From Tetraselmis striata (lineage: Eukaryota > Chlorophyta > Chlorodendrophyceae > Chlorodendrales > Chlorodendraceae): 64,000 nucleotides of DNA. The position numbers and the translations under genes are program-made. The DNA lies in assembly GCA_006384855.1 (NCBI GenBank), contig VCJN01002948.1, positions 62,001 to 126,000 of the forward strand. The letters run 5' to 3'. The notes under the pieces were generated by a model. It made no database searches. It was not told the origin of the DNA and saw only the letters and a program-made list of their open reading frames with translations. Below, in pieces: positions 1-64,000 of the stretch. Numbering within the stretch: position 1 is the stretch's first letter; every line of letters begins with the position of its first letter.

Positions 1-66
1 CATCGGCGCCTCTTCCCCCGTGAGTGCGTTCCACACCCGCACCGTCTTGTCCTCCGACGCACTAAC

Positions 67-612
67 TTACCGTGTGCGCCTGCCCCCCCAAAGCCGTTGC
101 GCCTCCCCCCTTGTGAGCGCGTTCCGCACCCGCACCGTCTTGTCCTCCGACGCACTGACATGTTGCTTGCCGTCCGGACTGAAGGCCACGCTAGTGACAA
201 CCTTAGTGTGCCCCCGCAGCGGCTGCGGCAGCACTTCTTCCCCCGTGAGCGCGTTCCACACCCGTAGTAATTTGTCCCTCGACGCACTGACCAGCCGCGG
301 GCCGTCCGGGCTGAAGGCCACGCTGGTGACCACCTCAGTGTGCCCCTTCGGGGGGCGCGGCTGCGCCTCAGCCCCCGTGAGCGCGTTCCGCACCCGCACC
401 GTCTTGTCCTCCGACGCACTGGCCAGGTGCTTGCCGTCCGGACTAGAGGCCACGCTGGTGACCATCCCAGTGTGCCCCCGCAGCGGCTGCGGCAGCACTT
501 CCCCCGTGATCGCGTTCCACACCCGCACCGTCTTGCCCTCCGACGCACATGCCAGACGCGTGCCGTCCGGGCTGAAGGCCACCCTCGTGATCACCTCGGT
601 GTGCCCCCGCAT
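67..612 (-). pseudogene. WD40 blades of unit A1 between two TAA codons
   Basis: 181 residues, about four blades ([40 protein letters not shown]) plus a partial short Arg-rich blade. The first Met lies two codons after TAA at 616-618, which replaces the CAG (Gln) codon of the APMQPMRGH linker. The end is TAA at 67-69, which replaces the Leu of RRTRLVSAS. Both codons are intact in sister blades, so this is an internal fragment, not a gene. Copies lie at 2271, 4475, 6680, 22286, 24490 and 26694. Confidence 0.75.
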
Positions 613-615
613 CGG

Positions 616-918
616 TTACATCGGCGCCTCTTCCCCCGTGAGCGCGTTCCACACCCGCACCGTCTTGTCCTCCGACGCACTCCCTAGCCGTGTGCCGTCT
701 GGGTTGAAGGCCACGCTGGTGACCACCTCAGTGGGCCGCTGCAGCGGCCGTGGCAGCGCCTCCCCCCCCCCGTCACCTCGCTCCACACACCGCACCGTCT
801 TGTCTTCCAACGCACTGACCAGTTGCTTGCGGTTCGGACTGAAGGCCACGCTGGTGACCATCTTAGTGTGCCCCCGCAATGGCAGCGGCTGCACCTCCCC
901 CCCGTGAGCGCGTTCCAC
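616..918 (-). pseudogene. WD40 blades with C-V-E in place of V-W-N, unit A1
   Basis: Two blades. The first reads [16 protein letters not shown]: a frame slip inside the RVWNALTG strand converts it and is then closed through the C tract at 762-771 into EALPRPLQRPTEVV, so the WD40 frame resumes. The second blade ([17 protein letters not shown]) is canonical and ends at TAA 616-618. Upstream the frame is lost in the C tract near 896-902. Equivalents lie at 2820, 7229, 22835, 25039 and 27243. Confidence 0.65.
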
Positions 919-1391
919 ACCCGCACCGTCTTGTTCTCCGACGCACAGGCCAGCCGCTTGCCGTCCGGGCTGAAGGCCACGCTAGTGACCACTTCGGTGT
1001 GCCGCCGCAGCTGCTGCGGGAGCGCCTCTTCCCCCGTGAGCGCGTTCCACACCCGCACCGTCTTGTCCTCCGCTGCACAGGCCAGCCGCGTGCCGTCGGG
1101 GCTGAAGGCCAAGCGGTTGACCACCTCAATGTACCCCCGCAGCGGGTGCGGCTGCGCCTCCCCCCCCCCGTGAGTGCGTTCCGCGCCCGCGCCGTGTTGT
1201 CCTCCGACGCACTGACATGTTGCTTGCCGTCCGGGCTGAAGGCCACGCTGGTGACCACCTCAGTTTGCCCCCGCAGCGGCTGCGGCAGCACTTCTTCCCC
1301 CGTGATCGCGTTCCACAGCCGTAGTGTCTTGTCCCTCGACGCACTAGCCAGCCGCGTGCCGTCCGGGCTGAAGGCCACGCTGGTGACCACC

Positions 1392-1784
1392 TCAGTGTGC
1401 CCCTTCAGAGGCTGCATCGGCGCCCTTTCCCCCGTGAGCGCGTCCCACACCCGTAGTGTTGTCATAGAACGCACATGCCAATCGCTTGTTGTCCGGGCTG
1501 CAGGCCATGCTAGTGACCACCTCAGTGTGCCCCCGCATCGGATGCAGCAGCGCCTCCTCCCCCGTGAGCGCGTTCCACACCCGCACCGTCCAGTCTGCCG
1601 ACGCACGGGCTTGCTGCGTGCCGTACGGACTGAAGGCCGCGCTGGTGACCACCTCAGTGTGCCCCTTCAGCGGCTGCGGTAGCGCCTCCTCCCCCGTTAG
1701 CGCGTCCCACACCCGCAGTGTCTTGTCATAGGACGCATTGGTCAGCCGGTTGCCGTCCGGGCTGAAGGCCACGCTAGTAAACAC
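1392..1784 (-). pseudogene. W-D type WD40 blades, unit A1
   Basis: 130 residues, three blades: [29 protein letters not shown] and a third losing frame at ACAFYDNT, where GTCTTGTC of sister blades has become GTTGTC (two bases lost near 1459). It is in the same frame as 1839-2048, separated only by TAG at 1839-1841. It recurs at 3596, 5801, 8405, 11799, 23611, 25815, 28419, 33682, 37085, 44431 and 54623. Confidence 0.7.
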
Positions 1785-1838
1785 CTCAGTGTGCCGCCGC
1801 AGCGGATGCGGGAGCGCCTCTTCCCCCGTGAGCGCGTT

Positions 1839-2048
1839 CTATTCCCCCACCGTCTTGTCCTCCGACGCATAGGCCAGCCGTGTGCCGTCCGGGCTGAAGG
1901 CCACGCTGGTGACCACCTCACTGTGCCCCTTCAGCGGGTGCGGCAGCGCCTCCTCCCCCGTTAGCGCGTCCCACACCCGTAGTGTCTTGTCATAGGACGC
2001 ACTAGTCAGCCGCTTGCCGTCCGGGCTGAAGGCCACGCTAGTAAACAC
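1839..2048 (-). pseudogene. Two-blade unit ending at amber in the Trp position
   Basis: Open interval of 69 residues: [16 protein letters not shown] followed by [12 protein letters not shown] and TAG. Sister blades read KTVGVWNALTG here, so GTGTGG has become GAATAG. The apparent start is an internal GTG (Val of TEVFTSV). This is the monomer of the 264-bp arrays. Confidence 0.75.
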
Positions 2049-2204
2049 CTCAGTGTGCCGCCGCAGCGGATGCGGGAGCGCCTCTTCCCCCGTGAGCGCG
2101 TTCTATTCCCCCACCGTCTTGTCCTCCGACGCATAGGCCAGCCGTGTGCCGTCCGGGCTGAAGGCCACGCTGGTGACCACCTCACTGTGCCCCCGCATGG
2201 GCTG

Positions 2205-4408
2205 CATCGGCGCCTCTTCCCCCGTGAGTGCGTTCCACACCCGCACCGTCTTGTCCTCCGACGCACTAACTTACCGTGTGCGCCTGCCCCCCCAAAGCCG
2301 TTGCGCCTCCCCCCTTGTGAGCGCGTTCCGCACCCGCACCGTCTTGTCCTCCGACGCACTGACATGTTGCTTGCCGTCCGGACTGAAGGCCACGCTAGTG
2401 ACAACCTTTGTGTGCCCCCGCAGCGGCTGCGGCAGCACTTCTTCCCCCGTGAGCGCGTTCCACACCCGTAGTAATTTGTCCCTCGACGCACTGACCAGCC
2501 GCGGGCCGTCCGGGCTGAAGGCCACGCTGGTGACCACCTCAGTGTGCCCCTTCGGGGGGCGCGGCTGCGCCTCAGCCCCCGTGAGCGCGTTCCGCACCCG
2601 CACCGTCTTGTCCTCCGACGCACTGGCCAGGTGCTTGCCGTCCGGACTAGAGGCCACGCTGGTGACCATCCCAGTGTGCCCCCGCAGCGGCTGCGGCAGC
2701 ACTTCCCCCGTGATCGCGTTCCACACCCGCACCGTCTTGCCCTCCGACGCACATGCCAGACGCGTGCCGTCCGGGCTGAAGGCCACCCTCGTGATCACCT
2801 CGGTGTGCCCCCGCATCGGTTACATCGGCGCCTCTTCCCCCGTGAGCGCGTTCCACACCCGCACCGTCTTGTCCTCCGACGCACTCCCTAGCCGTGTGCC
2901 GTCTGGGTTGAAGGCCACGCTGGTGACCACCTCAGTGGGCCGCTGCAGCGGCCGTGGCAGCGCCTCCCCCCCCCCGTCACCTCGCTCCACACACCGCACC
3001 GTCTTGTCTTCCAACGCACTGACCAGTTGCTTGCGGTTCGGACTGAAGGCCACGCTGGTGACCATCTTAGTGTGCCCCCGCAATGGCAGCGGCTGCACCT
3101 CCCCCCCGTGAGCGCGTTCCACACCCGCACCGTCTTGTTCTCCGACGCACAGGCCAGCCGCTTGCCGTCCGGGCTGAAGGCCACGCTAGTGACCACTTCG
3201 GTGTGCCGCCGCAGCTGCTGCGGGAGCGCCTCTTCCCCCGTGAGCGCGTTCCACACCCGCACCGTCTTGTCCTCCGCTGCACAGGCCAGCCGCGTGCCGT
3301 CGGGGCTGAAGGCCAAGCGGTTGACCACCTCAATGTACCCCCGCAGCGGGTGCGGCTGCGCCTCCCCCCCCCCGTGAGTGCGTTCCGCGCCCGCGCCGTG
3401 TTGTCCTCCGACGCACTGACATGTTGCTTGCCGTCCGGGCTGAAGGCCACGCTGGTGACCACCTCAGTTTGCCCCCGCAGCGGCTGCGGCAGCACTTCTT
3501 CCCCCGTGATCGCGTTCCACAGCCGTAGTGTCTTGTCCCTCGACGCACTAGCCAGCCGCGTGCCGTCCGGGCTGAAGGCCACGCTGGTGACCACCTCAGT
3601 GTGCCCCTTCAGAGGCTGCATCGGCGCCCTTTCCCCCGTGAGCGCGTCCCACACCCGTAGTGTTGTCATAGAACGCACATGCCAATCGCTTGTTGTCCGG
3701 GCTGCAGGCCATGCTAGTGACCACCTCAGTGTGCCCCCGCATCGGATGCAGCAGCGCCTCCTCCCCCGTGAGCGCGTTCCACACCCGCACCGTCCAGTCT
3801 GCCGACGCACGGGCTTGCTGCGTGCCGTACGGACTGAAGGCCGCGCTGGTGACCACCTCAGTGTGCCCCTTCAGCGGCTGCGGTAGCGCCTCCTCCCCCG
3901 TTAGCGCGTCCCACACCCGCAGTGTCTTGTCATAGGACGCATTGGTCAGCCGGTTGCCGTCCGGGCTGAAGGCCACGCTAGTAAACACCTCAGTGTGCCG
4001 CCGCAGCGGATGCGGGAGCGCCTCTTCCCCCGTGAGCGCGTTCTATTCCCCCACCGTCTTGTCCTCCGACGCATAGGCCAGCCGTGTGCCGTCCGGGCTG
4101 AAGGCCACGCTGGTGACCACCTCACTGTGCCCCTTCAGCGGGTGCGGCAGCGCCTCCTCCCCCGTTAGCGCGTCCCACACCCGTAGTGTCTTGTCATAGG
4201 ACGCACTAGTCAGCCGCTTGCCGTCCGGGCTGAAGGCCACGCTAGTAAACACCTCAGTGTGCCGCCGCAGCGGATGCGGGAGCGCCTCTTCCCCCGTGAG
4301 CGCGTTCTATTCCCCCACCGTCTTGTCCTCCGACGCATAGGCCAGCCGTGTGCCGTCCGGGCTGAAGGCCACGCTGGTGACCACCTCACTGTGCCCCCGC
4401 ATGGGCTG
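2205..4408 (-). repeat. Higher-order unit A2 (2204 bp)
   Basis: Near-identical to A1, with only scattered single-base differences; for example 2405-2415 reads CCTTTGTGTG where A1 reads CCTTAGTGTG. It carries the same stops, the same 10-C tract near 2966-2975 and the same CT deletion in the W-D blade. Such uniformity implies recent amplification or homogenisation by unequal crossing-over or gene conversion. Confidence 0.9.
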
Positions 4409-6613
4409 CATCGGCGCCTCTTCCCCCGTGAGTGCGTTCCACACCCGCACCGTCTTGTCCTCCGACGCACTAACTTACCGTGTGCGCCTGCCCCCCCAAA
4501 GCCGTTGCGCCTCCCCCCTTGTGAGCGCGTTCCGCACCCGCACCGTCTTGTCCTCCGACGCACTGACATGTTGCTTGCCGTCCGGACTGAAGGCCACGCT
4601 AGTGACAACCTTAGTGTGCCCCCGCAGCGGCTGCGGCAGCACTTCTTCCCCCGTGAGCGCGTTCCACACCCGTAGTAATTTGTCCCTCGACGCACTGACC
4701 AGCCGCGGGCCGTCCGGGCTGAAGGCCACGCTGGTGACCACCTCAGTGTGCCCCTTCGGGGGGCGCGGCTGCGCCTCAGCCCCCGTGAGCGCGTTCCGCA
4801 CCCGCACCGTCTTGTCCTCCGACGCACTGGCCAGGTGCTTGCCGTCCGGACTAGAGGCCACGCTGGTGACCATCCCAGTGTGCCCCCGCAGCGGCTGCGG
4901 CAGCACTTCCCCCGTGATCGCGTTCCACACCCGCACCGTCTTGCCCTCCGACGCACATGCCAGACGCGTGCCGTCCGGGCTGAAGGCCACCCTCGTGATC
5001 ACCTCGGTGTGCCCCCGCATCGGTTACATCGGCGCCTCTTCCCCCGTGAGCGCGTTCCACACCCGCACCGTCTTGTCCTCCGACGCACTCCCTAGCCGTG
5101 TGCCGTCTGGGTTGAAGGCCACGCTGGTGACCACCTCAGTGGGCCGCTGCAGCGGCCGTGGCAGCGCCTCCCCCCCCCCCGTCACCTCGCTCCACACACC
5201 GCACCGTCTTGTCTTCCGACGCACTGACCAGTTGCTTGCGGTTCGGACTGAAGGCCACGCTGGTGACCATCTTAGTGTGCCCCCGCAATGGCAGCGGCTG
5301 CACCTCCCCCCCGTGAGCGCGTTCCACACCCGCACCGTCTTGTTCTCCGACGCACAGGCCAGCCGCTTGCCGTCCGGGCTGAAGGCCACGCTAGTGACCA
5401 CTTCGGTGTGCCGCCGCAGCTGCTGCGGGAGCGCCTCTTCCCCCGTGAGCGCGTTCCACACCCGCACCGTCTTGTCCTCCGCTGCACAGGCCAGCCGCGT
5501 GCCGTCGGGGCTGAAGGCCAAGCGGTTGACCACCTCAATGTACCCCCGCAGCGGGTGCGGCTGCGCCTCCCCCCCCCCGTGAGTGCGTTCCGCGCCCGCG
5601 CCGTGTTGTCCTCCGACGCACTGACATGTTGCTTGCCGTCCGGGCTGAAGGCCACGCTGGTGACCACCTCAGTTTGCCCCCGCAGCGGCTGCGGCAGCAC
5701 TTCTTCCCCCGTGATCGCGTTCCACAGCCGTAGTGTCTTGTCCCTCGACGCACTAGCCAGCCGCGTGCCGTCCGGGCTGAAGGCCACGCTGGTGACCACC
5801 TCAGTGTGCCCCTTCAGAGGCTGCATCGGCGCCCTTTCCCCCGTGAGCGCGTCCCACACCCGTAGTGTTGTCATAGAACGCACATGCCAATCGCTTGTTG
5901 TCCGGGCTGCAGGCCATGCTAGTGACCACCTCAGTGTGCCCCCGCATCGGATGCAGCAGCGCCTCCTCCCCCGTGAGCGCGTTCCACACCCGCACCGTCC
6001 AGTCTGCCGACGCACGGGCTTGCTGCGTGCCGTACGGACTGAAGGCCGCGCTGGTGACCACCTCAGTGTGCCCCTTCAGCGGCTGCGGTAGCGCCTCCTC
6101 CCCCGTTAGCGCGTCCCACACCCGCAGTGTCTTGTCATAGGACGCATTGGTCAGCCGGTTGCCGTCCGGGCTGAAGGCCACGCTAGTAAACACCTCAGTG
6201 TGCCGCCGCAGCGGATGCGGGAGCGCCTCTTCCCCCGTGAGCGCGTTCTATTCCCCCACCGTCTTGTCCTCCGACGCATAGGCCAGCCGTGTGCCGTCCG
6301 GGCTGAAGGCCACGCTGGTGACCACCTCACTGTGCCCCTTCAGCGGGTGCGGCAGCGCCTCCTCCCCCGTTAGCGCGTCCCACACCCGTAGTGTCTTGTC
6401 ATAGGACGCACTAGTCAGCCGCTTGCCGTCCGGGCTGAAGGCCACGCTAGTAAACACCTCAGTGTGCCGCCGCAGCGGATGCGGGAGCGCCTCTTCCCCC
6501 GTGAGCGCGTTCTATTCCCCCACCGTCTTGTCCTCCGACGCATAGGCCAGCCGTGTGCCGTCCGGGCTGAAGGCCACGCTGGTGACCACCTCACTGTGCC
6601 CCCGCATGGGCTG
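4409..6613 (-). repeat. Higher-order unit A3 (2205 bp)
   Basis: Same blade order as A1. It is one base longer because the C tract at 5170-5180 has 11 C where A1, A2 and A4 have 10. That base moves the following blade into a different frame, so the open interval 5024-5533 here has no equivalent in the sister units. Confidence 0.9.
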
Positions 6614-9217
6614 CATCGGCGCCTCTTCCCCCGTGAGTGCGTTCCACACCCGCACCGTCTTGTCCTCCGACGCACTAACTTACCGTGTGCGCCTGCCCCC
6701 CCAAAGCCGTTGCGCCTCCCCCCTTGTGAGCGCGTTCCGCACCCGCACCGTCTTGTCCTCCGACGCACTGACATGTTGCTTGCCGTCCGGACTGAAGGCC
6801 ACGCTAGTGACAACCTTAGTGTGCCCCCGCAGCGGCTGCGGCAGCACTTCTTCCCCCGTGAGCGCGTTCCACACCCGTAGTAATTTGTCCCTCGACGCAC
6901 TGACCAGCCGCGGGCCGTCCGGGCTGAAGGCCACGCTGGTGACCACCTCAGTGTGCCCCTTCGGGGGGCGCGGCTGCGCCTCAGCCCCCGTGAGCGCGTT
7001 CCGCACCCGCACCGTCTTGTCCTCCGACGCACTGGCCAGGTGCTTGCCGTCCGGACTAGAGGCCACGCTGGTGACCATCCCAGTGTGCCCCCGCAGCGGC
7101 TGCGGCAGCACTTCCCCCGTGATCGCGTTCCACACCCGCACCGTCTTGCCCTCCGACGCACATGCCAGACGCGTGCCGTCCGGGCTGAAGGCCACCCTCG
7201 TGATCACCTCGGTGTGCCCCCGCATCGGTTACATCGGCGCCTCTTCCCCCGTGAGCGCGTTCCACACCCGCACCGTCTTGTTCTCCGACGCACTCCCTAG
7301 CCGTGTGCCGTCTGGGTTGAAGGCCACGCTGGTGACCACCTCAGTGGGCCGCTGCAGCGGCCGTGGCAGCGCCTCCCCCCCCCCGTCACCTCGCTCCACA
7401 CACCGCACCGTCTTGTCTTCCGACGCACTGACCAGTTGCTTGCGGTCCGGACTGAAGGCCACGCTGGTGACCATCTTAGTGTGCCCCCGCAATGGCAGCG
7501 GCTGCACCTCCCCCCCGTGAGCGCGTTCCACACCCGCACCGTCTTGTTCTCCGACGCACAGGCCAGCCGCTTGCCGTCCGGGCTGAAGGCCACGCTAGTG
7601 ACCACTTCGGTGTGCCGCCGCAGCTGCTGCGGGAGCGCCTCTTCCCCCGTGAGCGCGTTCCACACCCGCACCGTCTTGTCCTCCGCTGCACAGGCCAGCC
7701 GCGTGCCGTCGGGGCTGAAGGCCAAGCGGTTGACCACCTCAATGTACCCCCGCAGCGGGTGCGGCTGCGCCCCCCCCCCCCCCGTGAGTGCGTTCCGCGC
7801 CCGCGCCGTGTTGTCCTCCGACGCACTGACATGTTGCTTGCCGTCCGGGCTGAAGGCCACGCTGGTGACCACCTCAGTTTGCCCCCGCAGCGGCTGCGGC
7901 AGCACTTCTTCCCCCGTGATCGCGTTCCACAGCCGTAGTGTCTTGTCCCTCGACGCACTAGCCAGCCGCGTGCCGTCCGGGCTGAAGGCCACGCTGGTGA
8001 CCACCTCAGTGTGCCCCTTCAGCGGCTGCATCGGCGCCTCTTCCCCCGTGAGCGCGTTCCACACCCGCACCGTCTTGTCCTCCGACGCATTGACCAGCCG
8101 CGTGCTGTCTGGGCTGAAGGACAAGCGGTTGACCACCTCAATGAACCCCCGCAGCGGGTGCGGCTGCGCCTCCCCCCCCCCCGTGAGTGCGTTCCGCGCC
8201 CGCGCCGTCTTGTCCTCCGACGCACTGACATGTTGCTTGCCGTCCGGGCTGAAGGCCACGCTGGTGACCACCTCAGTTTGCCCCCGCAGCGGCTGCGGCA
8301 GTACTTCTTCCCCCGTGATCGCGTTCCACAGCCGTAGTGTCTTGTCCCTCGACGCACTAGCCAGCCGCGTGCCGTCCGGGCTGAAGGCCACGCTGGTGAC
8401 CACCTCAGTGTGCCCCTTCAGAGGCTGCATCGGCGCCCTTTCCCCCGTGAGCGCGTCCCACACCCGTAGTGTTGTCATAGAACGCACATGCCAATCGCTT
8501 GTTGTCCGGGCTGCAAGCCATGCTAGTGACCACCTCAGTGTGCCCCCGCATCGGATGCAGCAGCGCCTCCTCCCCCGTGAGCGCGTTCCACACCCGCACC
8601 GTCCAGTCTGCCGACGCACGGGCTTGCTGCGTGCCGTCCGGACTGAAGGCCGCGCTGGTGACCACCTCAGTGTGCCCCTTCAGCGGCTGCGGTAGCGCCT
8701 CCTCCCCCGTTAGCGCGTCCCACACCCGCAGTGTCTTGTCATAGGACGCATTGGTCAGCCGGTTGCCGTCCGGGCTGAAGGCCACGCTAGTAAACACCTC
8801 AGTGTGCCGCCGCAGCGGATGCGGGAGCGCCTCTTCCCCCGTGAGCGCGTTCTATTCCCCCACCGTCTTGTCCTCCGACGCATAGGCCAGCCGTGTGCCG
8901 TCCGGGCTGAAGGCCACGCTGGTGACCACCTCACTGTGCCCCTTCAGCGGGTGCGGCAGCGCCTCCTCCCCCGTTAGCGCGTCCCACACCCGTAGTGTCT
9001 TGTCATAGGACGCACTAGTCAGCCGCTTGCCGTCCGGGTTAAAGGCCACGCTAGTAAACACCTCAATGTGCCGCCGCAGCGGCTGCGGGAGCGCCTCTTC
9101 CCCCGTGAGCGCGTTCTATTCCCCCACCGTCTTGTCCTCCGACGCATAGGCCAGCCGTGTGACGTCCGGGCTGAAGGCCACGCTGGTGACCACCTCTATG
9201 TCCCCCCGCAGGGGCTG
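6614..9217 (-). repeat. Higher-order unit A4 with three-blade insertion
   Basis: Matches A1-A3 up to about 8010. It then contains about 399 extra bases (about 8011-8409, three blades including the [11 protein letters not shown] blade) before rejoining the unit at the W-D blade. The C tract at about 7770-7783 has 14 C with the usual interrupting T lost, which keeps the WD40 frame open through it. After about 9218 the sequence leaves the A pattern (KTLRVWN blade with a short LACASEGK loop). Confidence 0.85.
7297..8619 (-). CDS. WD40-repeat fragment, about seven blades in frame (unit A4)
   Basis: 440 codons without a stop. It begins in the Arg/Cys-rich alternative frame, enters the WD40 frame near 8468 where the CT-deleted blade reads [11 protein letters not shown], and stays there through seven blades and two G-tracts of 11 and 14 nt (poly-Gly TGGGEAQ and TGGGGAQ). 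It leaves the frame at the seven-C tract near 7510-7516. There is no start or domain other than WD40. It is the longest open stretch of block 1, repeated at 27311-28633. Confidence 0.55.
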   Translation of the reverse strand: MRRQTGRCGCGTRSRGRRRCCIRCGGTLRWSLAWLAARTTSDWHVRSMTTLRVWDALTGERAPMQPLKGHTEVVTSVAFSPDGTRLASASRDKTLRLWNAITGEEVLPQPLRGQTEVVTSVAFSPDGKQHVSASEDKTARARNALTGGGEAQPHPLRGFIEVVNRLSFSPDSTRLVNASEDKTVRVWNALTGEEAPMQPLKGHTEVVTSVAFSPDGTRLASASRDKTLRLWNAITGEEVLPQPLRGQTEVVTSVAFSPDGKQHVSASEDNTARARNALTGGGGAQPHPLRGYIEVVNRLAFSPDGTRLACAAEDKTVRVWNALTGEEALPQQLRRHTEVVTSVAFSPDGKRLACASENKTVRVWNALTGGRCSRCHCGGTLRWSPAWPSVRTASNWSVRRKTRRCGVWSEVTGGGRRCHGRCSGPLRWSPAWPSTQTAHG

Positions 9218-9370
9218 CATCGGCGCCTCTTCCCCCGTGAGTGCGTTCCACACCCGTAGTGTCTTGCCCTCCGACGCACATGCCAGCACATGGTTAAAGG
9301 CCACGCTAGTAAACACCTTCGTGTGTCGCCGCAGCGACTGCGGGAGCGCCTCTTCCCCCGTGAGCGCGTT

Positions 9371-9976
9371 CTATTCCCCCACCGTCATGACCTCCGACGC
9401 ATAGGCCAGCCGTGTGACGTCCGGGCTGAAGGCCACGCTGGTGACCACCTCAGTTTGCCCCCGCAGCGGCTGCGGCAGCACTTCTTCCCCCGTGAGCACG
9501 TTCCACACCCGCACCGTCTTGTTCTCCGACGCACAGGCCTGCCGCGTGCCGTCCGGGCTGAAGGCCACGCTAGTGACCACTTCGGTGTGCCGCCGCAGCT
9601 GCTGCGGGAGCGCCTCTTCCCCCGTGATCGCGTTCCACACCCGTAGTGTCTTGCCCTCCCACGCACATGCCAGGCGCGTGCCGTCTGGGCTGAAGGCCAC
9701 GCTGGTGACAACCTCAATGTCCCCCCGCAGGGGCTGCATCGGCGCCTCTTCCCCCGTGAGTGCGTTCCACACCCGCACCGTCTTGATCTCCGTCGCACTG
9801 ACTAGCCGCGGGCCGTCGGGGCTGAAGGCCACGCTAGTGACCACCTCAGTGTGCCCCTTCAGCGGCTGCGGTAGCGCCTCCTCCCCCGTTAGCGCGTCCC
9901 ACACCCGTAGTGTTTTGTCATAGGCCGCACTAGTCAGCCGCTTGCCGTCCGGGCTGAAGGCCACGCTAGTAAACAC
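9371..9976 (-). pseudogene. WD40 fragment, five blades in one frame
   Basis: 201 residues wholly in the WD40 frame: [48 protein letters not shown] and YASEVMTVGE, then TAG. The EIKTV and WEGKTL blades are variants of the SEDKTV strand with different surface residues. Its copy at 29385-29990 differs by E-to-K in the fourth linker. Confidence 0.65.
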
Positions 9977-51462: not shown

Positions 51463-52714
51463 TGGCTAGGTGCTTGCCGTCCGGACTGAAGGCCGCGCTG
51501 GTGACCATCCCAGCGTGCCCCCGCAGCGGGTGCGGCGGCACTTCTTCCCCCGTGATCGCGTTCCACACCCGTAGTGTCTTGCCCTCCCACGCACATGCCA
51601 TGCGCGTGCCGTCTGGGCTGAAGGCCACGCTGGTGACCACCTCAATGTGCCCCCGCAGGGGCTGCATCGGCGCCTCTTCCCCCGTTAGTGCGTTCTACAC
51701 CCGCACCGTCTTGATCTCCGTCGCACTGACCTGCCGCGGGCCGTCGGGGCTGAAGGCCACGCTGGTGACCACCTCACTGTGCCCCTTCAGCGGCTGCGGC
51801 AGCGCCTCCTCCCCCGTTAGCGCGTCCCACATCCGTAGTGTCTGGTCATAGGAGGCACTAGTCAGCCGCTTGCCGTCCGGGCTGAAGGCCACGCTAGTAA
51901 ACACCTCAGTGTGCCGCCACAGCGGCTGCGGGAGCGCCTCTTCCCCCGTGAGCGCGTTCTATTCCCCCACCGTCTTGTCCTTTGACGCATAGGCCAGCCG
52001 TGTGCCGTCCGGGCTGAAGGCCACGCTGGTGACCACCTCAATGTGCCCCCGCAGCGGCTGCATCGGCGCCTCTCCCCCGTGAGTGCGTTCCACACCCGCA
52101 CCGTCTTGTCCTCCGACGCACTGACCAACCGCGAGCGCCTGCCCCCCCGACGCCGCTGCGCCTCCCCCCCCGTGAGCGCGTTCCGCACCCGCACCGTCTT
52201 GTCCTCCGACGCACTGACCAACCGCGAGCGCCTGCCCCCCCGACGCCGCTGCGCCTCCCCCCCCCGTGAGCGCGTTCCACACCCGCACCGTCTTGTCCTC
52301 CGACGCACTGACCAACCGCGTGCGCGTGCCCCCCCGAAGCCGCTGCGCCTCCGCCCCCGTGAGCGCGTTCCGCACCCCTACCGTCTTGTCCGACACACAG
52401 GCCAGGCGTTTGCCGTCCGGGCTGAAGGCCACGCTGGTGACCACCTCAATGTGCCCCCGCAGGGGCTGCATCGGCGCCTCTTCCCCCGTGAGGGCGTGCC
52501 ACACCCGCACCGTCTTGTCCTCCGCTGCACTGACCTGCCGCGGGCCGTCGGGGCTGAAGGCCACGCTGGTGACCACCTCAGTGTGCCCCTTCAGCGGCTG
52601 CGGCAGCGCCTCCTCCCCCGTTAGCGCGTCCCACATCCGTAGTGTCTGGTCATAGGAGGCACTAGTCAGCCGCTTGCCGTCCGGGCTGAAGGCCACGCTA
52701 GTAAACACCTCAGT

Positions 52715-55285: not shown

Positions 55286-57256
55286 GTGCCGCCACAGCGG
55301 CTGCGGGAGCGCCTCTTCCCCCGTGAGCGCGTTCTATTCCCCCACCGTCTTGTCCTTTGACGCATAGGCCAGCCGTGTGACGTCCGGGCTGAAGGCCACG
55401 CTGGTGACCACCTTAATGTGCCCCCGCATGGGCTGCATCGGCGCCTCTTCCCCGTGAGTGCGTTCCACCCGCACCGTCTTGTCCTCCGACGCACTGACCA
55501 ACCGCGTGCGCCTGCCCCCCCGACGCCGCTGCGCCTCCCCCCCCCGTGAGCGCGTTCCGCACCCGCACCGTCTTGTCCTCCGACGCACTGGCCAGGTGCT
55601 TGCCGTCCGGACTAGAGGCCACGCTGGTGACCACCTTAGTGTGCCCCCGCAGCGGCTGCGGGAGCGCCTCTTCCCCCGTGAGCGCGTTCCACACCCCTAC
55701 CGTCTTGTCCTCCGACGCACAAGCCAGCCGTTTGCCGTCCGGGCTGAAGGCCACAATGGCGACCACCTCAATGTGTTCCCGCATGGGCTGCATCGGCGCC
55801 GCTTTCCCCGTGAGTGCGTTCCACACCCGCACCGTCTTGTCCTCCGACGCACTGACCAGCCGCCTGCGCGTGCCCCCCCGACGCCGCTGCGCCTCCCCCC
55901 GTGTGAGCGCAAACCGCAGCCGCACCGTCTTGTCCTGGCCTCGCGGACGCACGGGCCAGTTGCTTGCCGTCCGGACTGAAGGCCACGCTAGTGACAACCT
56001 TAGTGTGCCCCCGCAGCGGCTGCGGCAGCACTTCTTCCCCTGTGACCGCGTTCCACACCCGTAGTAATTTGTCCCTCGACGCACCGACCAGCCGCGGGCC
56101 GTCCGGGCTGAAGGAAACGCTGGTGACCACCTCAGTAGGCCCGGGCGGGGGGCGCGGCAGCGCTTCCCCCCCGTCAGCGCGTTCCGCACCCGCACCGTCT
56201 TGTCCTCCGACGCACTGGCCAGGTGCTTGCCGTCCGGACTAGAGGCCACGCAGGTGACCATCCCAGTGTGCCCGCGCAGCGTGTGCGGCGACACTTCTTC
56301 CCCCGAGATCGCGTTCCACACCCGTAGTGTCTTGTCATAGGACGCACATGCCAGCCGCGTGCCGTCCGGGCTGAAGGCCACGCTGGTGACCACCTTAGTG
56401 TGCCCCGCAGCGGCTGCATCGGCGCCCTTTCCCCCGTGAGCGCGTTCCACACCCGCACCGTCTTGTTCTCCGACGCACAGGCCAGCCGCGTGCCGTCGGG
56501 GCTGAAGGCCAAGCGGTTGACCACCTCAATGTACCCCCGCAGCGGGTGCGGCTGCGCCTCCCCCCCCCCCGTGAGTGCGTTCCGCGCCCGCGCCGTGTTG
56601 TCCTCCGACGCACTGACATGTTGCTTGCCGTCCGGGCTGAAGGCCACGCTGGTGACCACCTCAGTTTGCCCCCGCAGCGGCTGCGGCAGCACTTCTTCCC
56701 CCGTGATCGCGTTCCACAGCCGTAGTGTCTTGTCCCTCGACGCACTAGCCAGCCGCGTGCCGTCCGGGCTGAAGGCCACGCTGGTGACCACCTCAGTGTG
56801 CCCCTTCAGGGGCTGCATCGGCGCCTCTTCCCCCGTGAGCGCGTTCCACACCCGCACCGTCTTGTCCTCCGACGCATTGACCAGCCGCGTGCTGTCTGGG
56901 CTGAAGGACAAGCGGTTGACCACCTCAATGAACCCCCGCAGCGGGTGCGGCTGCGCCTCCCCCCCCCCCCCGTGAGTGCGTTCCGCGCCCGCGCCGTGTT
57001 GTCCTCCGACGCACTGACATGTTGCTTGCCGTCCGGGCTGAAGGCCACGCTGGCGACCACCTCAGTTTGCCCCCGCAGCGGGTGCGGCAGTACTTCTTCC
57101 CCCGTGATCGCGTTCCACAGCTGTAGTGTCTTGTCCCTCGACGCACTTGCCAGCCGCGTGCCGTCCGGGCTGAAGGCCACGCTGGTGACCACCTCAGTGT
57201 GCCCCTTCAGAGGCTGCATCGGCGCCCTTTCCCCTGTGAGCGCGTCCCACACCCGC
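55286..57256 (-). repeat. Internal 2571-bp repeat of B2, second copy (shortened)
   Basis: B2 counterpart of 45094-47068 with the same switch point. Identical internal breakpoints in B1 and B2 show that the 2.57-kb duplication happened before the 10.19-kb amplification. Confidence 0.82.
56174..56923 (-). CDS. WD40-repeat fragment, second internal repeat of B2
   Basis: 249 codons. Five blades in frame across an 11-C tract (about 56560-56570). The frame is then lost at [12 protein letters not shown] because one C is missing in GTGTGCCCCGCAG near 56403, a deletion shared by all 2571-bp repeats. In B1 the homologous tract has 10 C, so the same blades are disconnected. Confidence 0.5.
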   Translation of the reverse strand: MVNRLSFSPDSTRLVNASEDKTVRVWNALTGEEAPMQPLKGHTEVVTSVAFSPDGTRLASASRDKTLRLWNAITGEEVLPQPLRGQTEVVTSVAFSPDGKQHVSASEDNTARARNALTGGGEAQPHPLRGYIEVVNRLAFSPDGTRLACASENKTVRVWNALTGERAPMQPLRGTLRWSPAWPSARTARGWHVRPMTRHYGCGTRSRGKKCRRTRCAGTLGWSPAWPLVRTASTWPVRRRTRRCGCGTR

Positions 57257-57330
57257 AGTGTCTTGTCATAGGACGCATTGGTCAGCCGGTTGCCGTCCGG
57301 GCTGAAGGCCACGCTAGTAAACACCTCAGT

Positions 57331-58122
57331 GTGCCGCCGCAGCGGATGCGGGAGCGCCTCTTCCCCCGTGAGCGCGTTCTATTCCCCCACCGTCTTGTAA
57401 TCCGACGCATAGGCCAGCCGTGTGCCGTCCGGGCTGAAGGCCACGCTGGTGACCACCTCAGTGTGCCCCTTCAGCGGGTGCGGCAGCGCCTCCTCCCCCG
57501 TTAGCGCGTCCCACACCCGTAGTGTCTTGTCATAGGACGCACTAGTCAGCCGCTTGCCGTCCGGGCTGAAGGCCACGCTAGTAAACACCTCAGTGTGCCG
57601 CCGCAGCGGATGCGGGAGCGCCTCTTCCCCCGTGAGCGCGTTCTATTCCCCCACCGTCTTGTCCTCCGACGCATAGGCCAGCCGTGTGCCGTCCGGACTG
57701 AAGGCCGCGCTGGTGACCACCTCAGTGTGCCCCTTCAGCGGCTGCGGTAGCGCCTCCTCCCCCGTTAGCGCGTCCCACACCCGCAGTGTCTTGTCATAGG
57801 ACGCATTGGTCAGCCGGTTGCCGTCCGGGCTGAAGGCCACGCTAGTAAACACCTCAGTGTGCCGCCGCAGCGGATGCGGGAGCGCCTCTTCCCCCGTGAG
57901 CGCGTTCTATTCCCCCACCGTCTTGTCCTCCGACGCATAGGCCAGCCGTGTGCCGTCCGGGCTGAAGGCCACGCTGGTGACCACCTCAGTGTGCCCCTTC
58001 AGCGGGTGCGGCAGCGCCTCCTCCCCCGTTAGCGCGTCCCACACCCGTAGTGTCTTGTCATAGGACGCATTGGTCAGCCGGTTGCCGTCCGGGCTGAAGG
58101 CCACGCTAGTAAACACCTCAGT
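57331..58122 (-). repeat. Two-blade (264 bp) tandem array at B2/B3 junction
   Basis: Units start at 57331, 57595 and 57859, with the next at 58123. They have the same alternation as at 47143-47934, except that the last W-D blade has been converted to the NRLTNAS variant, a visible small conversion event. Confidence 0.92.
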
Positions 58123-58170
58123 GTGCCGCCGCAGCGGATGCGGGAGCGCCTCTTCCCCCGTGAGCGCGTT

Positions 58171-58791
58171 CTATTCCCCCACCGTCTTGTCCTCCGACGC
58201 ATAGGCCAGCCGTGTGCCGTCCGGGCTGAATGCCACGCTGGTGACCACCTCACTGTGCCCCCGCATGGGCTGCATCGGCGCCTCTTCCCCCGTGAGTGCG
58301 TTCCGCACCCGCACCGTCTTGTCCTCCGACGCAATGGCCAGTTGCTTGCCGTCCGGACTGAAGGCCACGCTAGTGACATCCTTAGTGTGCCCCCGCAGCG
58401 GCTGCGGCAGCACTTCTTCCCCCGTGATCGCGTTCCACACCCGTAGTAATTTGTCCCTCGACGCACTGACCAGCCGCGGGCCGTCCGGGCTGAAGGAAAC
58501 GCTGGTGACCACCTCAGTGTGCCCCTGCGGGGGGCGCGGCTGCGCCTCAGCCCCCGTGAGCGCGTTCCGCACCCGCACCGTCTTGTCCTCCGACGCACTG
58601 GCCAGGTGCTTGCCGTCCGGACTAGAGGCCACGCTGGTGACCATCCCAGTGTGCCCCCGCAGCGGCTGCGGCAGCACTTCCCCCGTGATCGCGTTCCACA
58701 CCCGCACCGTCTTGCCCTCCGACGCACATGCCAGACGCGTGCCGTCCGGGCTGAAGGCCACCCTCGTGATCACCTCGGTGTGCCCCCGCAT
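58171..58791 (-). pseudogene. WD40 fragment at the start of B3
   Basis: Copy of 37796-38416 with the GHSEVV variant in its last blade. The upstream stop context differs: GGTTACTTTGGCGCC gives APK-stop where all other copies give APM-stop. Confidence 0.62.
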
Positions 58792-58794
58792 CGG

Positions 58795-59529
58795 TTACTT
58801 TGGCGCCTCTTCCCCCGTGAGCGCGTTCCACACCCGCACCGTCTTGTTCTCCGACGCACTGCCTAGCCGTGTGCCGTCTGGGTTGAAGGCCACGCTGGTG
58901 ACCACCTCAGTGGGCCGCTGCAGCGGCCGTGGCAGCGCCTCCCCCCCCCCGTCACCTCGTTCCACACACCGCACCGTCTTGTCTTCCGACGCACTGACCA
59001 GTTGCTTGCGGTCCGGACTGAAGGCCACGCTGGTGACCATCTTAGTGTGCCCCCGCAATGGCAGCGGCTGCACCTCCACCCCCGTGAGCGCGTTCCACAC
59101 CCGCACCGTCTTGTTCTCCGACGCACAGGCCAGCCGCTTGCCGTCCGGGCTGAAGGCCACGCTAGTGACCACTTCGGTGTGCCGCCGCAGCTGCTGCGGG
59201 AGCGCCTCTTCCCCCGTGAGCGCGTTCCACACCCGCACCGTCTTGTCCTCCGCTGCACAGGCCAGCCGCGTGCCGTCGGGGCTGAAGGCCAAGCAGATGA
59301 CCACCTCAATGTACCCCCGCAGCGGGTGCGGCTGCGCCTCCCCCCCCCCCCCCGTGAGTGCGTTCCGCGCCCGCGCCGTCTTGTCCTCCGACGCACTGAC
59401 ATGTTGCTTGCCGTCCGGGCTGAAGGCCACGCTGGTGACCACCTCAGTTTGCCCCCGCAGCGGGTGCGGCAGTACTTCTTCCCCCGTGATCGCGTTCCAC
59501 AGCTGTAGTGTCCTTGTCCCTCGACGCAC
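58795..59529 (-). CDS. WD40-repeat fragment, about six blades in frame (B3)
   Basis: 244 codons. WD40 frame from LQLWNAITG through [16 protein letters not shown] (linker VVICLAF), [21 protein letters not shown] and SENKTV blades, to TAA. The 14-C tract at 59340-59353 is crossed in frame; the same site has 13 C in B1 and 16 in B2, both frame-breaking. It starts at an extra C near 59513 (GTGTCCTTGTCC) private to B3. Confidence 0.5.
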   Translation of the reverse strand: MRRGTRTLQLWNAITGEEVLPHPLRGQTEVVTSVAFSPDGKQHVSASEDKTARARNALTGGGGEAQPHPLRGYIEVVICLAFSPDGTRLACAAEDKTVRVWNALTGEEALPQQLRRHTEVVTSVAFSPDGKRLACASENKTVRVWNALTGVEVQPLPLRGHTKMVTSVAFSPDRKQLVSASEDKTVRCVERGDGGGEALPRPLQRPTEVVTSVAFNPDGTRLGSASENKTVRVWNALTGEEAPK

Positions 59530-60238
59530 TAGCCAGCCGCGTGCCGTCCGGGCTGAAGGCCACGCTGGTGACCACCTCAGTGTGCCCCTTCAGAGGCTGC
59601 ATCGGCGCCCTTTCCCCCGTGAGCGCGTTCCACACCCGCACCGTCTTGTTCTCCGACGCACAGGCCAGCCGCTTGCCGTCCGGGCTGAAGGCCACGCTAG
59701 TGACCACTTCGGTGTGCCGCCGCAGCTGCTGCGGCAGCGCCTCTTCCCCCGTGAGCGCGTTCCACACCCGCACCGTCTTGTCCTCCGCTGCACAGGCCAG
59801 CCGCGTGCCGTCGGGGCTGAAGGCCAAGCGGTTGACCACCTCAATGTACCCCTGCAGCGGGTGCGGCTGCGCCTCCCCCCCCCCGTGAGTGCGTTCCGCG
59901 CCCGCGCCGTCTTGTCCTCCGACGCACTGACATGTTGCTTGCCGTCCGGGCTGAAGGCCACGCTGGTGACCACCTCAGTTTGCCCCCGCAGCGGCTGCGG
60001 CAGCACTTCTTCCCCCGTGATCGCGTTCCACAGCCGTAGTGTCTTGTCCCTCGACGCACTAGCCAGCCGCGTGCCGTCCGGGCTGAAGGCCACGCTGGTG
60101 ACCACCTCAGTGTGCCCCTTCAGGGGCTGCATCGGCGCCTCTTCCCCCGTGAGCGCGTTCCACACCCGCACCGTCTTGTCCTCCGACGCATTGACCAGCC
60201 GCGTGCTGTCTGGGCTGAAGGACAAGCGGTTGACCACC

Positions 60239-60847
60239 TCAATGTACCCCCGCAGCGGGTGCGGCTGCGCCTCCCCCCTCCCCCGTGAGCGCGTTCCACA
60301 CCCGCACCGTCCAGTCTGCACGCGCACGGGCTTGCTGCGTGCCGTCCGGACTGAAGGCCACGCTGGTGACCACCTCAGTGTGCCCCTTCAGCGGCTGCGG
60401 TAGCGCCTCCTCCCCCGTTAGCGCGTCCCACACCCGCAGTGTCTTTTCATAGGACGCATTGGTCAGCCGGTTGCCGTCCGGGCTGAAGGCCACGCTAGTA
60501 AACACCTCAGTGTGCCGCCGCAGCGGATGCGGGAGCGCCTCTTCCCCTACCCCTACCCCTACCGTCTTGTTCTCCGACACACAGGCCAGCCGTTTGCCGT
60601 CCGGGCTGAAGGCCACGCTAGTGACCACCTCAATGTGCCCCCGCAGGGGCTGCATCGGCGCCTCCTCCCCCGTGAGTGCGTTCCACACCCGCACCGTCCA
60701 GTCTGCCGACGCACGGGCTTGCCGCGTGCCGTCCGGGCTGAAGGCCACGCTGGTGACCACCTCAGTGTGCCCCTTCAGCGGCTGCGGTAGCGCCTCGTCC
60801 CCCGTTAGCGCGTCCTTAACCTGTAGTGTCTTGTCATAGGGACGCAC
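60239..60847 (-). pseudogene. WD40 fragment with Gly-Val-Gly-Val blade (B3)
   Basis: Third copy of 39862-40515. An extra G at 60841 removes the first blade from the frame. A GCACGC for GCCCGC variant at about 60319 is private. Confidence 0.5.
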
Positions 60848-62628
60848 TGGTCAGCCGCTTGCCGTCCGGGCTGAAGGCCAAGCTAGTGACCACTTCGGTG
60901 TGCCCCCGCAGCGGCTGCGGGAGCGCCTCTTCCCCGTGAGCGAGTTCTATTCCCCCACCGACTTGTCCTCCGACGCATAGGCCAGCCGTGTGCCGTCCGG
61001 GCTGAAGGCCACGCTGGTGACCACCTCAATGTGCCCCCGCAGGGGCTGCATCGGCGCCTCTTCCCCCGTGAGTGCGTTCCACACCCGCACCGTCTTGTCC
61101 TCCGACGCACGGGCTTGCCGCGTGCCGTCCGGGCTGAAGGCCACGCTAGTGACCACTTCGGTGTGCCGCCGCAGCTGCTGCGGCAGCGCCTCTTCCCCCG
61201 TGAGCGCGTTCCACACCCGCACCGTCTTGTCCTCCGCTGCACAGGCCAGCCGCGTGCCGTCGGGGCTGAAGGCCAAGCGGTTGACCACCTCAATGTACCC
61301 CCGCAGCGGGTGCGGCTGCGCCTCCCCCCCCCCCGTGAGTGCGTTCCGCACCCGCACCGTCTTGTCCTCCGACGCACTGACATGTTGCTTGCCGTCCGGA
61401 CTGAAGGCCACGCTAGTGACAACCTTAGTGTGCCCCCGCAGCGGCTGCGGCAGCACTTCTTCCCCCGTGAGCGCGTTCCACACCCGTAGTAATTTGTCCC
61501 TCGACGCACTGACCAGCCGCGGGCCGTCCGGGCTGAAGGCCACGCTGGTGACCACCTCAGTGTGCCCCTGCGGGGGGCGCGGCTGCGCCTCCCCCCCCCC
61601 CCCCCGTGAGCGCGTCCCGCACCCGCACCGTCTTGTCCTCCGACGCACTGGCTAGGTGCTTGCCGTCCGGACTGAAGGCCGCGCTGGTGACCATCCCAGC
61701 GTGCCCCCGCAGCGGGTGCGGCGGCACTTCTTCCCCCGTGATCGCGTTCCACACCCGTAGTGTCTTGCCCTCCCACGCACATGCCATGCGCGTGCCGTCT
61801 GGGCTGAAGGCCACGCTGGTGACCACCTCAATGTGCCCCCGCAGGGGCTGCATCGGCGCCTCTTCCCCCGTTAGTGCGTTCTACACCCGCACCGTCTTGA
61901 TCTCCGTCGCACTGACCTGCCGCGGGCCGTCGGGGCTGAAGGCCACGCTGGTGACCACCTCACTGTGCCCCTTCAGCGGCTGCGGCAGCGCCTCCTCCCC
62001 CGTTAGCGCGTCCCACATCCGTAGTGTCTGGTCATAGGAGGCACTAGTCAGCCGCTTGCCGTCCGGGCTGAAGGCCACGCTAGTAAACACCTCAGTGTGC
62101 CGCCACAGCGGCTGCGGAGCGCCTCTTCCCCCGTGAGCGCGTTCTATTCCCCCACCGTCTTGTCCTTTGACGCATAGGCCAGCCGTGTGCCGTCCGGGCT
62201 GAAGGCCACGCTGGTGACCACCTTAATGTGCCCCCGCAGCGGCTGCATCGGCGCCTCTCCCCCGTGAGTGCGTTCCACACCCGCACCGTCTTGTCCTCCG
62301 ACGCACTGACCAAACCGCGAGCGCCTGCCCCCCCGACGCCGCTGCGCCTCCCCCCCCGTGAGCGCGTTCCGCACCCGCACCGTCTTGTCCTCCGACGCAC
62401 TGACCAACCGCGAGCGCCTGCCCCCCGACGCCGCTGCGCCTCCCCCCCCGTGAGCGCGTTCCACACCCGCACCGTCTTGTCCTCCGACGCACTGACCAAC
62501 CGCGTGCGCGTGCCCCCCCGAAGCCGCTGCGCCTCCGCCCCCGTGAGCGCGTTCCGCACCCTACCGTCTTGTCCGACACACAGGCCAGGCGTTTGCCGTC
62601 CGGGCTGAAGGCCACGCTGGTGACCACC

Positions 62629-63754
62629 TCAATGTGCCCCCCGCAGGGGCTGCATCGGCGCCTCTTCCCCCGTGAGGGCGTGCCACACCCGCACCGTCTT
62701 GTCCTCCGCTGCACTGACCTGCCGCGGGCCGTCGGGGCTGAAGGCCACGCTGGTGACCACCTCAGTGTGCCCCTTCAGCGGCTGCGGCAGCGCCTCCTCC
62801 CCCGTTAGCGCGTCCCACATCCGTAGTGTCTGGTCATAGGAGGCACTAGTCAGCCGCTTGCCGTCCGGGCTGAAGGCCACGCTAGTAAACACCTCAGTGT
62901 GCCGCCACAGCGGCTGCGGGAGCGCCTCTTCCCCGTGAGCGCGTTCTATTCCCCCACCCGTCTTGTCCTTTGACGCATAGGCCAGCCGTGTGACGTCCGG
63001 GCTGAAGGCCACGCTGGTGACCACCTTAATGTGCCCCCGCATGGGCTGCATCGGCGCCTCTTCCCCGTGAGTGCGTTCCACCCGCACCGTCTTGTCCTCC
63101 GACGCACTGACCAACCGCGTGCGCCTGCCCCCCGACGCCGCTGCCGCCTCCCCCCCCGTGAGCGCGTTTCCGCACCCGCACCGTCTTGTCCTCCGACGCA
63201 CTGGCCAGGTGCTTGCCGTCCGGACTAGAGGCCAACGCTGGTGTGACCACCTTAGTGTGCCCCCGCAGCGGCTGCGGGAGCGCCTCTTCCCCCGTGAGCG
63301 CGTTCCACACCCCTACCGTCTTGTCCTCCGACGCACAAGCCAGCCGTTTGCCGTCCGGGGGCTGAAGGGCCACAATGGCGACCGACCTCAATGTGTTCCC
63401 CCGCATGGGCTGCATCGGGCGCCGCTTTCCCCGTGAGTGCGTTCCACACCCGCACCGTCTTGTCCTCCGACGCACTGACCAGCCGCCTGCGCGTGCCCCC
63501 CCGACGCCGCTTGCGCCTCCCCCCGTGTGAGCGCAAACCGCAGCCGCACCGTCTTGTCCTGGCCTCGCGGACGCACGGGCCAGTTGCTTGCCGTCCGGAC
63601 TGAAGGCCACGCTAGTGACAACCTTAGTGTGCCCCCGCAGCGGCTGCGGCAGCACTTCTTCCCCTGTGACCGCGTTCCACACCCGTAGTAATTTGTCCCT
63701 CGACGCACCGACCAGCCGCGGGCCGTCCGGGCTGAAGGAAACGCTGGTGACCAC
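62629..63754 (-). pseudogene. WD40 blades of the 2571-bp repeat in the indel-rich tail
   Basis: Corresponds to 52500-53559 in B2, but the frame is broken many times by one-base indels (for example extra C near 62642 and 62958, extra T near 63170, extra A and GT near 63235-63245, several extra G between 63355 and 63420). Blade order is unchanged. The pattern is more like sequencing or assembly error than biological decay. Confidence 0.55.
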
Positions 63755-64000
63755 CTCAGTAGGCCCGGGCGGGGGGCGCGGCAGCGCTTCCCCCCCGTCA
63801 GCGCGTTCCGCACCCGCACCGTCTTGTCCTCCGACGCACTGGCCAGGTGCTTGCCGTCCGGACTAGAGGCCCACGCAGGTGACCATCCCAGTGTGCCCGC
63901 GCAGCGTGTGCGGCGACACTTCTTCCCCCGAGATCGCGTTCCACACCCGTAGTGTCTTGTCATAGGACGCACATGCCAGCCGCGTGCCGTCCGGGCTGAA

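What the first reader, a model, noticed from the sequence alone, without database searches (positions are those of the whole stretch)
1..64000. A 63-kb, single-orientation WD40 array with at least five nested repeat periods
Blades of about 132 bp are grouped into 264-bp dimers, seven-blade modules of about 935 bp, units of 2204 bp, 2571 bp and 10188 bp, and a 12-14 kb segmental duplication at a 20-kb offset. This is the hierarchical organisation of satellite DNA, but built from a protein-domain sequence whose key residues are still recognisable in nearly every blade. Coding arrays of this size are unusual. The individual periods are read directly from repeating landmarks; calling it a WD40-derived satellite is inference.
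Basis: partly seen in the sequence, partly recalled or inferred. Interest (0 to 1): 0.85.

Follow-up and report, generated by a model that had tools for sequence, protein, structure and literature searches.

The report
Satellite DNA from immune-receptor repeats
A very long block of repeated DNA in what looks like a green alga's genome appears to be the broken, massively copied remains of the repeat part of an immune-receptor-like gene family whose intact-looking genes sit elsewhere in the same genome.

Summary
Apart from one 0.96-kb transposon, nearly the whole window is single-orientation WD40-type repeat (486 blade matches). The array continues over contig 22,149-177,037 (155 kb), with further stretches up to the contig end. 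Periods of 264, 2204, 2571, about 10,188 and 20,014/20,015 bp are real; 935 bp is weak.

The parent family was found. Eight loci elsewhere have open frames of 1374-1489 aa with a NACHT ATPase. The three I read end in 14, 14 and 15 near-identical 44-residue WD40 blades; the array consensus matches theirs at 128 of 132 bases. Those blades vary mainly at 8 codons (pN/pS 3.7 there, 0.31 elsewhere), much as in fungal HET-D/HET-E.

The array does not look coding. 217 of 990 blade spacings shift frame, 102 of 469 gap-free blades hold stops, most indels between copies break frame, and variation ignores the 8 sites. Stops and frameshifts were themselves amplified. A mild third-position excess remains between copies.

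Best reading: satellite DNA born from the WD40 part of an NLR-like receptor gene, grown after the sequence died. The host is probably a chlorophyte. No read or RNA data were available.

The parts
1..17236 (-). WD40-derived satellite, first stretch in the window (continues leftwards on the contig to contig 22,149)
   Evidence: TRF 132/264/396-bp rows; blade matches on one strand
17229..17236 (.). Target-site duplication GTCCTCCG, left copy
   Evidence: read from sequence
17237..18197 (.). hAT-like non-autonomous element, 961 bp, GC 42%, terminal inverted repeats about 17 bp (TAGGGCTCCGCATCAAG / TAAGGCTCCGCATCAAG). A second copy, 99.7% identical with the same duplication, lies at contig 55,826-56,787
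   Evidence: the hAT label is from memory of 8-bp target duplications
18198..18205 (.). Target-site duplication GTCCTCCG, right copy
18198..64000 (-). WD40-derived satellite, second stretch in the window (continues rightwards to contig 177,037)
2303..6711 (-). Two of the 2204-bp higher-order units (starts 2303, 4507; the next begins at 6712); 2204 is not a multiple of 3
   Evidence: TRF row starts; 2204-bp offset 6551 exact 40-mer pairs
22318..26725 (-). Second set of 2204-bp units (starts 22318, 24522), part of the segmental duplication at 20,014/20,015 bp offset
41883..62574 (-). About 10.19-kb units marked by 92-93-bp truncated blades (41,883-42,199; 52,066-52,391; 62,251-62,574)
   Evidence: TRF rows with period 92-93; 10,186-10,193 bp offsets
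31424..33235 (-). Longest minus-strand ORF in the window: 603 aa with WD40 blades (Pfam WD40 E 6e-116, 11 stretches). A plus-strand ORF of 599 aa lies opposite, and the longest ORF in the window (729 aa, 58,214-60,403) is on the plus strand, so length alone is no sign of coding

Best explanation
The window is the middle of a large satellite array. Shown: the array is related to the C-terminal WD40 region, and shares no detected sequence with the upstream part, of a NACHT-WD40 (NLR-like, STAND) receptor family whose intact-looking members survive elsewhere in the genome. Shown: the blades no longer keep a reading frame and no longer carry the receptor family's pattern of variation. Inferred: in the intact genes near-identical blades are kept alike by unequal crossing-over or conversion, as proposed for fungal HET-D/HET-E, which predisposes them to copy-number change. 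One such blade tract lost its upstream NACHT part and its frame. It then grew without protein-level selection by tandem and segmental duplication (264 bp, then 2.2 kb, then 10 kb, then 20 kb), carrying its stops, frameshifts and one hAT insertion along. As a locus it most likely does nothing as a protein; it behaves as ordinary satellite DNA that also collects retrotransposons.
For: Parent: 8 loci with a NACHT region 95-100% identical, each in an open frame of 1374-1489 aa, all with WD40 hits in that frame. Three were read and have 14, 14 and 15 blades. Consensus blades agree at 128 of 132 bases. 35-61% of the 21-mers of the three WD40 parts occur exactly in the array, against 0 of 2363-2585 in the part of each locus upstream of it; no NACHT on this contig (best E 7.8). 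Death: 217 of 990 blade spacings are not a multiple of 3 (83 of 419 in the window), against open frames through all 8 loci. 102 of 469 gap-free blades (of 1188) contain a stop; 81 blades have it at Trp30. Indels between copies that are multiples of 3: 5 of 59 (>=99% identity), 2 of 58 (97-99%), 6 of 18 (94-97%), 18 of 150 (<94%). The 8 codons holding 79% of variation in intact blades hold 17% in the array (18% if even). With sites chosen from one gene only, the other two genes put 67-75% there (pN/pS 2.4-4.8) and the array 17-24%. pN/pS at the 8 sites is 3.74 intact and 0.79 array. Amplified after death: 485 window blades fall into 87 types in a recurring order. On C1949 a 783-bp unit is 99.8% identical at that offset in the 2000 bases read and carries stops and frame breaks. 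The two hAT copies share their target site and are 99.7% identical.
Against: Codon positions are not neutral-looking throughout. Third-position share of substitutions is 0.36 at >=99% identity (69/61/74, p 0.53 against even), but 0.42 at 97-99% (45/49/69), 0.39 at 94-97% (134/161/190) and 0.40 below 94% (848/937/1192). The >=99% class is too small to be told from these. The constrained codons of the intact blades show 0.56 (0.37-0.80 by gene). Array pN/pS is 0.67, not 1. So part of the divergence arose under constraint or under mutation bias. In-frame runs remain (603 aa in the window; five 496-aa minus-strand ORFs on the contig), and no RNA data were available. Sequencing error could add to differences between near-identical copies. 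Only 3 of 8 intact genes were read. The order of units rests on an assembly whose reads I could not see.
Confidence: 0.83

Rival explanations
1. A giant expressed gene or gene cluster of WD40 proteins, with introns or frameshifting hiding the continuity.
For: Blades still score as WD40; minus-strand ORFs up to 603 aa in the window and 687 aa in the array; open-frame relatives exist; a mild third-position excess between most copy classes.
Against: Plus-strand ORFs in the array are as long (732 aa against 687 aa minus). Of the higher-order units, 2204, 10,192 and 20,014 bp are not multiples of 3, though 2571 and 10,188 bp are. Blade spacings mostly change by 1-4 nt inside blade-like sequence, and 217 of 990 shift frame. 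Most indels between copies break frame.
Confidence: 0.06
2. A donor archive: blades from the array are moved into the intact receptors by gene conversion, generating new recognition specificities, in the manner of silent cassettes.
For: In Podospora, repeats are proposed to exchange between active genes and pseudogenes of the same family (PMC1805685, passages). The array holds over a thousand related blades.
Against: None of 469 gap-free array blades lies within 8 mismatches of any of 43 intact blades (minimum 9, median 16), while intact blades have neighbours in the other two genes at 3-12 mismatches. The array is mostly Glu-Val at codons 4-5 (387 of 469), a pair found in 0 of 43 intact blades. 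Only 3 of 8 intact genes were compared.
Confidence: 0.04
3. Assembly artefact: a short WD40 array inflated by mis-assembly of near-identical reads.
For: Contigs end inside the array (this contig ends in it at 220,482; two other contigs carry the marker from near one end to near the other), so the assembler struggled.
Against: Copies differ by many substitutions and indels; 597 distinct inter-blade segments in 1367. Transposon insertions with their own target duplications interrupt it. The satellite recurs on other contigs, on C1949 with a different higher-order unit.
Confidence: 0.06

Closest known systems
Fungal HNWD/NWD genes of Podospora anserina (het-d, het-e, het-r): NACHT plus WD40 repeats of high internal conservation
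   Same: The intact genes here have a NACHT ATPase, near-identical WD40 repeats and a few codons with excess amino-acid change, all features reported for HNWD (PMC12222747 section 5; PMC1805685 passages).
   Different: Host is probably a green alga. The N-terminal part matches no Pfam family, blades are 44 residues instead of 42, and the three genes read have 14-15 blades. The window itself is not such a gene: it lacks NACHT, frame and the variation pattern.
NWD pseudogenes of Podospora (nwdp-1, nwdp-2)
   Same: Dead members of a NACHT-WD40 family.
   Different: There the pseudogenes keep 7 and 5 blades with one and no stop in the sequenced strain, thought to be refreshed from active genes; here over a thousand blades and no sign of exchange with the three genes compared.
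NACHT-WD40 proteins of Chlamydomonas reinhardtii
   Same: A chlorophyte NACHT with C-terminal WD40 repeats (PMC4773052 abstract and passages).
   Different: No array or satellite is described in the passages I saw; repeat identity is not discussed there.
Satellite DNA with higher-order repeats
   Same: Long head-to-tail array, nested periods, homogenised units, transposon insertions, contig ends inside it.
   Different: A review names rDNA spacers and transposable elements as seeds of satellites (PMC5615363 passages); here the seed is a protein-domain repeat inside a receptor gene.

Membership tests
Satellite DNA with higher-order repeat structure | Head-to-tail tandem array far longer than a gene | tested here: met
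   155 kb, interrupted by two hAT-like copies, plus further stretches on the contig
Satellite DNA with higher-order repeat structure | Nested higher-order units, more alike between units than within | tested here: met
   2204, about 10,188 and 20,014/5 bp offsets; mean ungapped identity at 132 bp 0.62; 783-bp offset 0.998 against 0.52 at 132 bp in 2000 bases of C1949
Satellite DNA with higher-order repeat structure | Non-coding evolution | tested here: met
   Frame, stops, indels and site pattern; but pN/pS 0.67 and a mild third-position excess remain
Satellite DNA with higher-order repeat structure | Heterochromatic or centromeric location | not testable with these tools
   no chromatin or cytogenetic data
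High-internal-conservation NLR (HNWD type), applied to the intact genes | NACHT plus C-terminal WD40 repeats in one protein | tested here: met
   NPHP3_N E 1e-16, NACHT E 4e-6 (27.2 bits, cut-off 26.7); 14-15 blades in 3 genes read
High-internal-conservation NLR (HNWD type), applied to the intact genes | Repeats near-identical except for a few codons with excess amino-acid change | tested here: met
   within-gene difference 6.6-10.3%; pN/pS 3.74 at 8 codons, 0.31 at 36; cross-checked between genes; no site model run
[quoted passage not shown]
   249-aa N-terminal piece: 0 Pfam families
High-internal-conservation NLR (HNWD type), applied to the intact genes | Recognition function and repeat-number polymorphism | not testable with these tools
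   one genome only
High-internal-conservation NLR (HNWD type), applied to the window | Open frame with NACHT | tested here: not met

The most novel reading that the evidence does not exclude
The satellite is not inert. It makes RNA, and small RNAs cut from it restrain the intact receptor family through the shared WD40 exon, much as plant small RNAs restrain NLR genes (recalled). In each of three intact genes 691-1123 of 1849-1982 21-mers of the WD40 part occur exactly in the array, and none of those upstream of it.
Probability: 0.1. Interest if true: 0.78.

Novelty: new variant of a known kind. Interest (0 to 1): 0.56.

Why it matters
Receptors of this kind need unstable, near-identical repeats to diversify. 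This locus looks like the other side of that instability: a sensor tract that escaped selection and grew into satellite DNA. It comes with its living relatives in the same genome, so the step from coding repeat to satellite can be followed blade by blade. The intact genes also suggest that the high-internal-conservation, site-diversifying design best known from fungi exists in a green alga. The paper searches listed no satellite built from NLR WD40 repeats; they cover open-licence papers only, I saw titles and starts of abstracts, and three of the lists were cut at 12-15 of 67-263 papers.

Tried and rejected
Considered and rejected: an expressed giant WD40 gene (frame, stops, indels); an archive exchanging blades with the intact genes (three genes); sequencing error as the cause of the frame breaks (open frames of 1374-1489 aa in 8 homologous loci and a 1015-aa pol ORF on the same contig).

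Weakened on checking: codon-position flatness as proof of neutrality. It holds only for the >=99% class; the other three classes have a third-position excess.

Led nowhere: naming the organism by 18S rRNA. The Rfam family search did not complete and three pattern searches found nothing; the green-lineage label rests on LHC proteins. A DNA search with a 2.2-kb unit was not scored. One search was my slip: the reverse complement, giving the same places. A consensus 33-mer that I expected in the array occurs 0 times on the contig although it is the column-wise consensus, a reminder that the array consensus is a composite. The script stopped with an index error after printing; its codon-position labels were shifted by one column and are not used.

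Rows dropped: for per-codon counts only the 469 of 1188 main-array blades without gaps were used, or the 173 distinct ones among them. For copies, only the best partner of each 2-kb tile, after removing duplicate pairs (75 of 77 tiles had a partner; 71 pairs counted).
Full report
Where the window lies. The window is bases 62,001-126,000 of a 220,482-base contig (C2379) in a 224-Mb, 2903-contig assembly. The genome has 63 matches to the chlorophyll a/b-binding family. One of the proteins (translated) matches chlorophyll a-b binding chains of solved structures very strongly (best single-domain match 7d0j_S, 443 bits over 221 residues; that 7d0j is from Chlamydomonas is recalled). I therefore take the host to be a chlorophyte. 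18S patterns found nothing, so it is not named.

The array. A blade model finds 486 matches in the window; a both-strand search gives 488, all minus. There are 1188 between contig 22,149 and 177,037. Smaller stretches lie at 18.2-18.6, 183.6-187.0 and 200.7-220.5 kb. The main array has only 30,673 distinct 40-mers in 154,849 positions. Offsets of 264, 2204, 2571, about 10,188 and 20,014/20,015 bp carry 1861-6551 exact 40-mer pairs in the window; 935 bp carries 27. When blades are clustered at 97%, 485 window blades give 87 types, whose order repeats in long runs. A marker 23-mer, absent from the three intact genes read, has 597 exact places genome-wide and 0 for its control. Of these, 404 are on this contig. 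The listing, cut at 100 places, shows 28 on C372 (31,397 bp), 66 on C1949 (54,689 bp) and 6 on C2345 (41,402 bp); 93 further places elsewhere are not listed. On C372 and C1949 the marker runs nearly end to end, so they are probably largely satellite; I read only 400 and 2000 bases of them.

The parent genes. A search with three blades hit, besides this contig, open frames of 1374-1489 aa on C2068, C116, C2552, C551, C544, C2711 and C237. Three were read (L029, L030, L031). Each has an N-terminal part, which in the one tested (L030) has no Pfam match while the next part matches NPHP3_N and NACHT, and 14, 14 and 15 blades. Searching with the NACHT part gave 8 loci at 95-100% identity, 5 at 41-43% (one of them, C1221, read as L026, has 42-residue blades), and decayed or weak pieces on C69, C1946, C2106 and C2410, but none on C2379. 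The C1946 piece, read, is a broken member with diverged blades.

Living blades versus array blades. In 43 intact blades, 8 of 44 codons (4, 5, 7, 14, 16, 23, 25, 44) hold 79% of amino-acid variation; in 469 gap-free array blades they hold 17%. Because these sites were picked on the same blades, I also chose sites from one gene and tested the other two: 67-75% of variation, pN/pS 2.4-4.8 there and 0.47-0.50 elsewhere, against 17-24% of variation in the array. On all 43 blades pN/pS is 3.74 at the 8 codons and 0.31 at the other 36; in 173 distinct array blades 0.79 and 0.65. These are simple counts, not a site model. In Podospora HNWD genes four codons are reported under diversifying selection with strong homogenisation elsewhere (PMC12222747 section 5; PMC1805685 passages). 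[quoted passage not shown]

Death and growth. In the main array 217 of 990 blade spacings are not multiples of three. 102 of 469 gap-free blades carry stops, 81 blades at the same tryptophan. Between copies, indels that are multiples of three number 5 of 59 (>=99% identical; 40 pairs, 79,573 aligned bases), 2 of 58 (97-99%), 6 of 18 (94-97%) and 18 of 150 (<94%). Substitutions on codon positions 1/2/3 are 69/61/74, 45/49/69, 134/161/190 and 848/937/1192 in the same four classes, that is third-position shares of 0.36, 0.42, 0.39 and 0.40. Only the first is compatible with evenness (p 0.53), and it is too small to be told from the others. The constrained 36 codons of the intact blades have a share of 0.56, with 0.37-0.80 by gene. 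With array pN/pS at 0.67, part of the divergence may predate loss of function or reflect mutation bias. The weight therefore rests on frame, stops, indels and the lost site pattern. Stops and frame breaks are shared by many copies, and on C1949 the sequence is 99.8% identical at a 783-bp offset while containing several of them. So the sequence was amplified after it died.

Insertions as time marks. A 961-bp hAT-like element with 8-bp target duplications sits at window 17,237-18,197. A copy with the same duplication, 99.7% identical, lies 23.4 kb away, so one insertion was later duplicated with its surroundings. At contig 187,018-200,689 an LTR element (LTRs 98.4% identical, target duplication CGTAG) sits in a blade and contains a second LTR pair (98.1%) flanking a 1015-aa pol ORF.

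How it works. Shown: kinship with the WD40 part of NACHT-WD40 genes, loss of frame and of the site pattern, amplification of dead units. Inferred: unequal crossing-over as the motor, the order of growth, and the absence of function. No exchange with living genes was seen: none of 469 array blades is within 8 mismatches of the 43 intact blades, though five further intact genes were not read. A regulatory role through RNA is untested; exact sharing of 35-61% of 21-mers of the intact WD40 parts makes it possible.

Novelty. Satellites with nested units are well known, and so are repeat-conserved NLRs in fungi. I found no report of a satellite seeded by NLR WD40 repeats in the searches listed under Why it matters. 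Of papers I saw listings only, except passages of PMC12222747 (and its section 5 in full), PMC4986451, PMC4773052, PMC8891106, PMC5615363 and PMC1805685.

Noticed in passing
window 17237-18197 and contig 55,826-56,787: hAT-like non-autonomous element, two copies 99.7% identical at the same target site, 23.4 kb apart: inserted once, then segmentally duplicated.
   Followed up: yes
contig 187,018-200,689 (outside window): LTR element with a second LTR pair and a 1015-aa Ty3-type pol ORF inside it, inserted in a blade; Ty3 label by eye.
   Followed up: partly
L029, L030, L031 (C2068, C551, C116): Open-frame NACHT-WD40 genes of a probable green alga with 14-15 near-identical blades and a few codons rich in amino-acid change; 14 would suit two seven-bladed propellers.
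   Followed up: partly
L028 (C2725, about 85-155 kb): Another WD40 family with 141-bp blades, in copies about 10.7 kb apart, with open frames of 196-578 aa: a tandem gene cluster that may still be coding.
   Followed up: no
L051 (C1949:32,001-34,000): 783-bp higher-order unit, 99.8% identity at that offset, with stops and frame breaks.
   Followed up: partly
contig 13,463-14,632 and 6,373-7,446 (outside window): ORFs with a glycosyltransferase 29 (sialyltransferase-like) domain and a phage-integrase-type recombinase, beside the array.
   Followed up: no
L030, N-terminal 249 aa: N-terminal part of an intact NACHT-WD40 protein without a Pfam match; it looks TIR-like to me by eye, untested.
   Followed up: no
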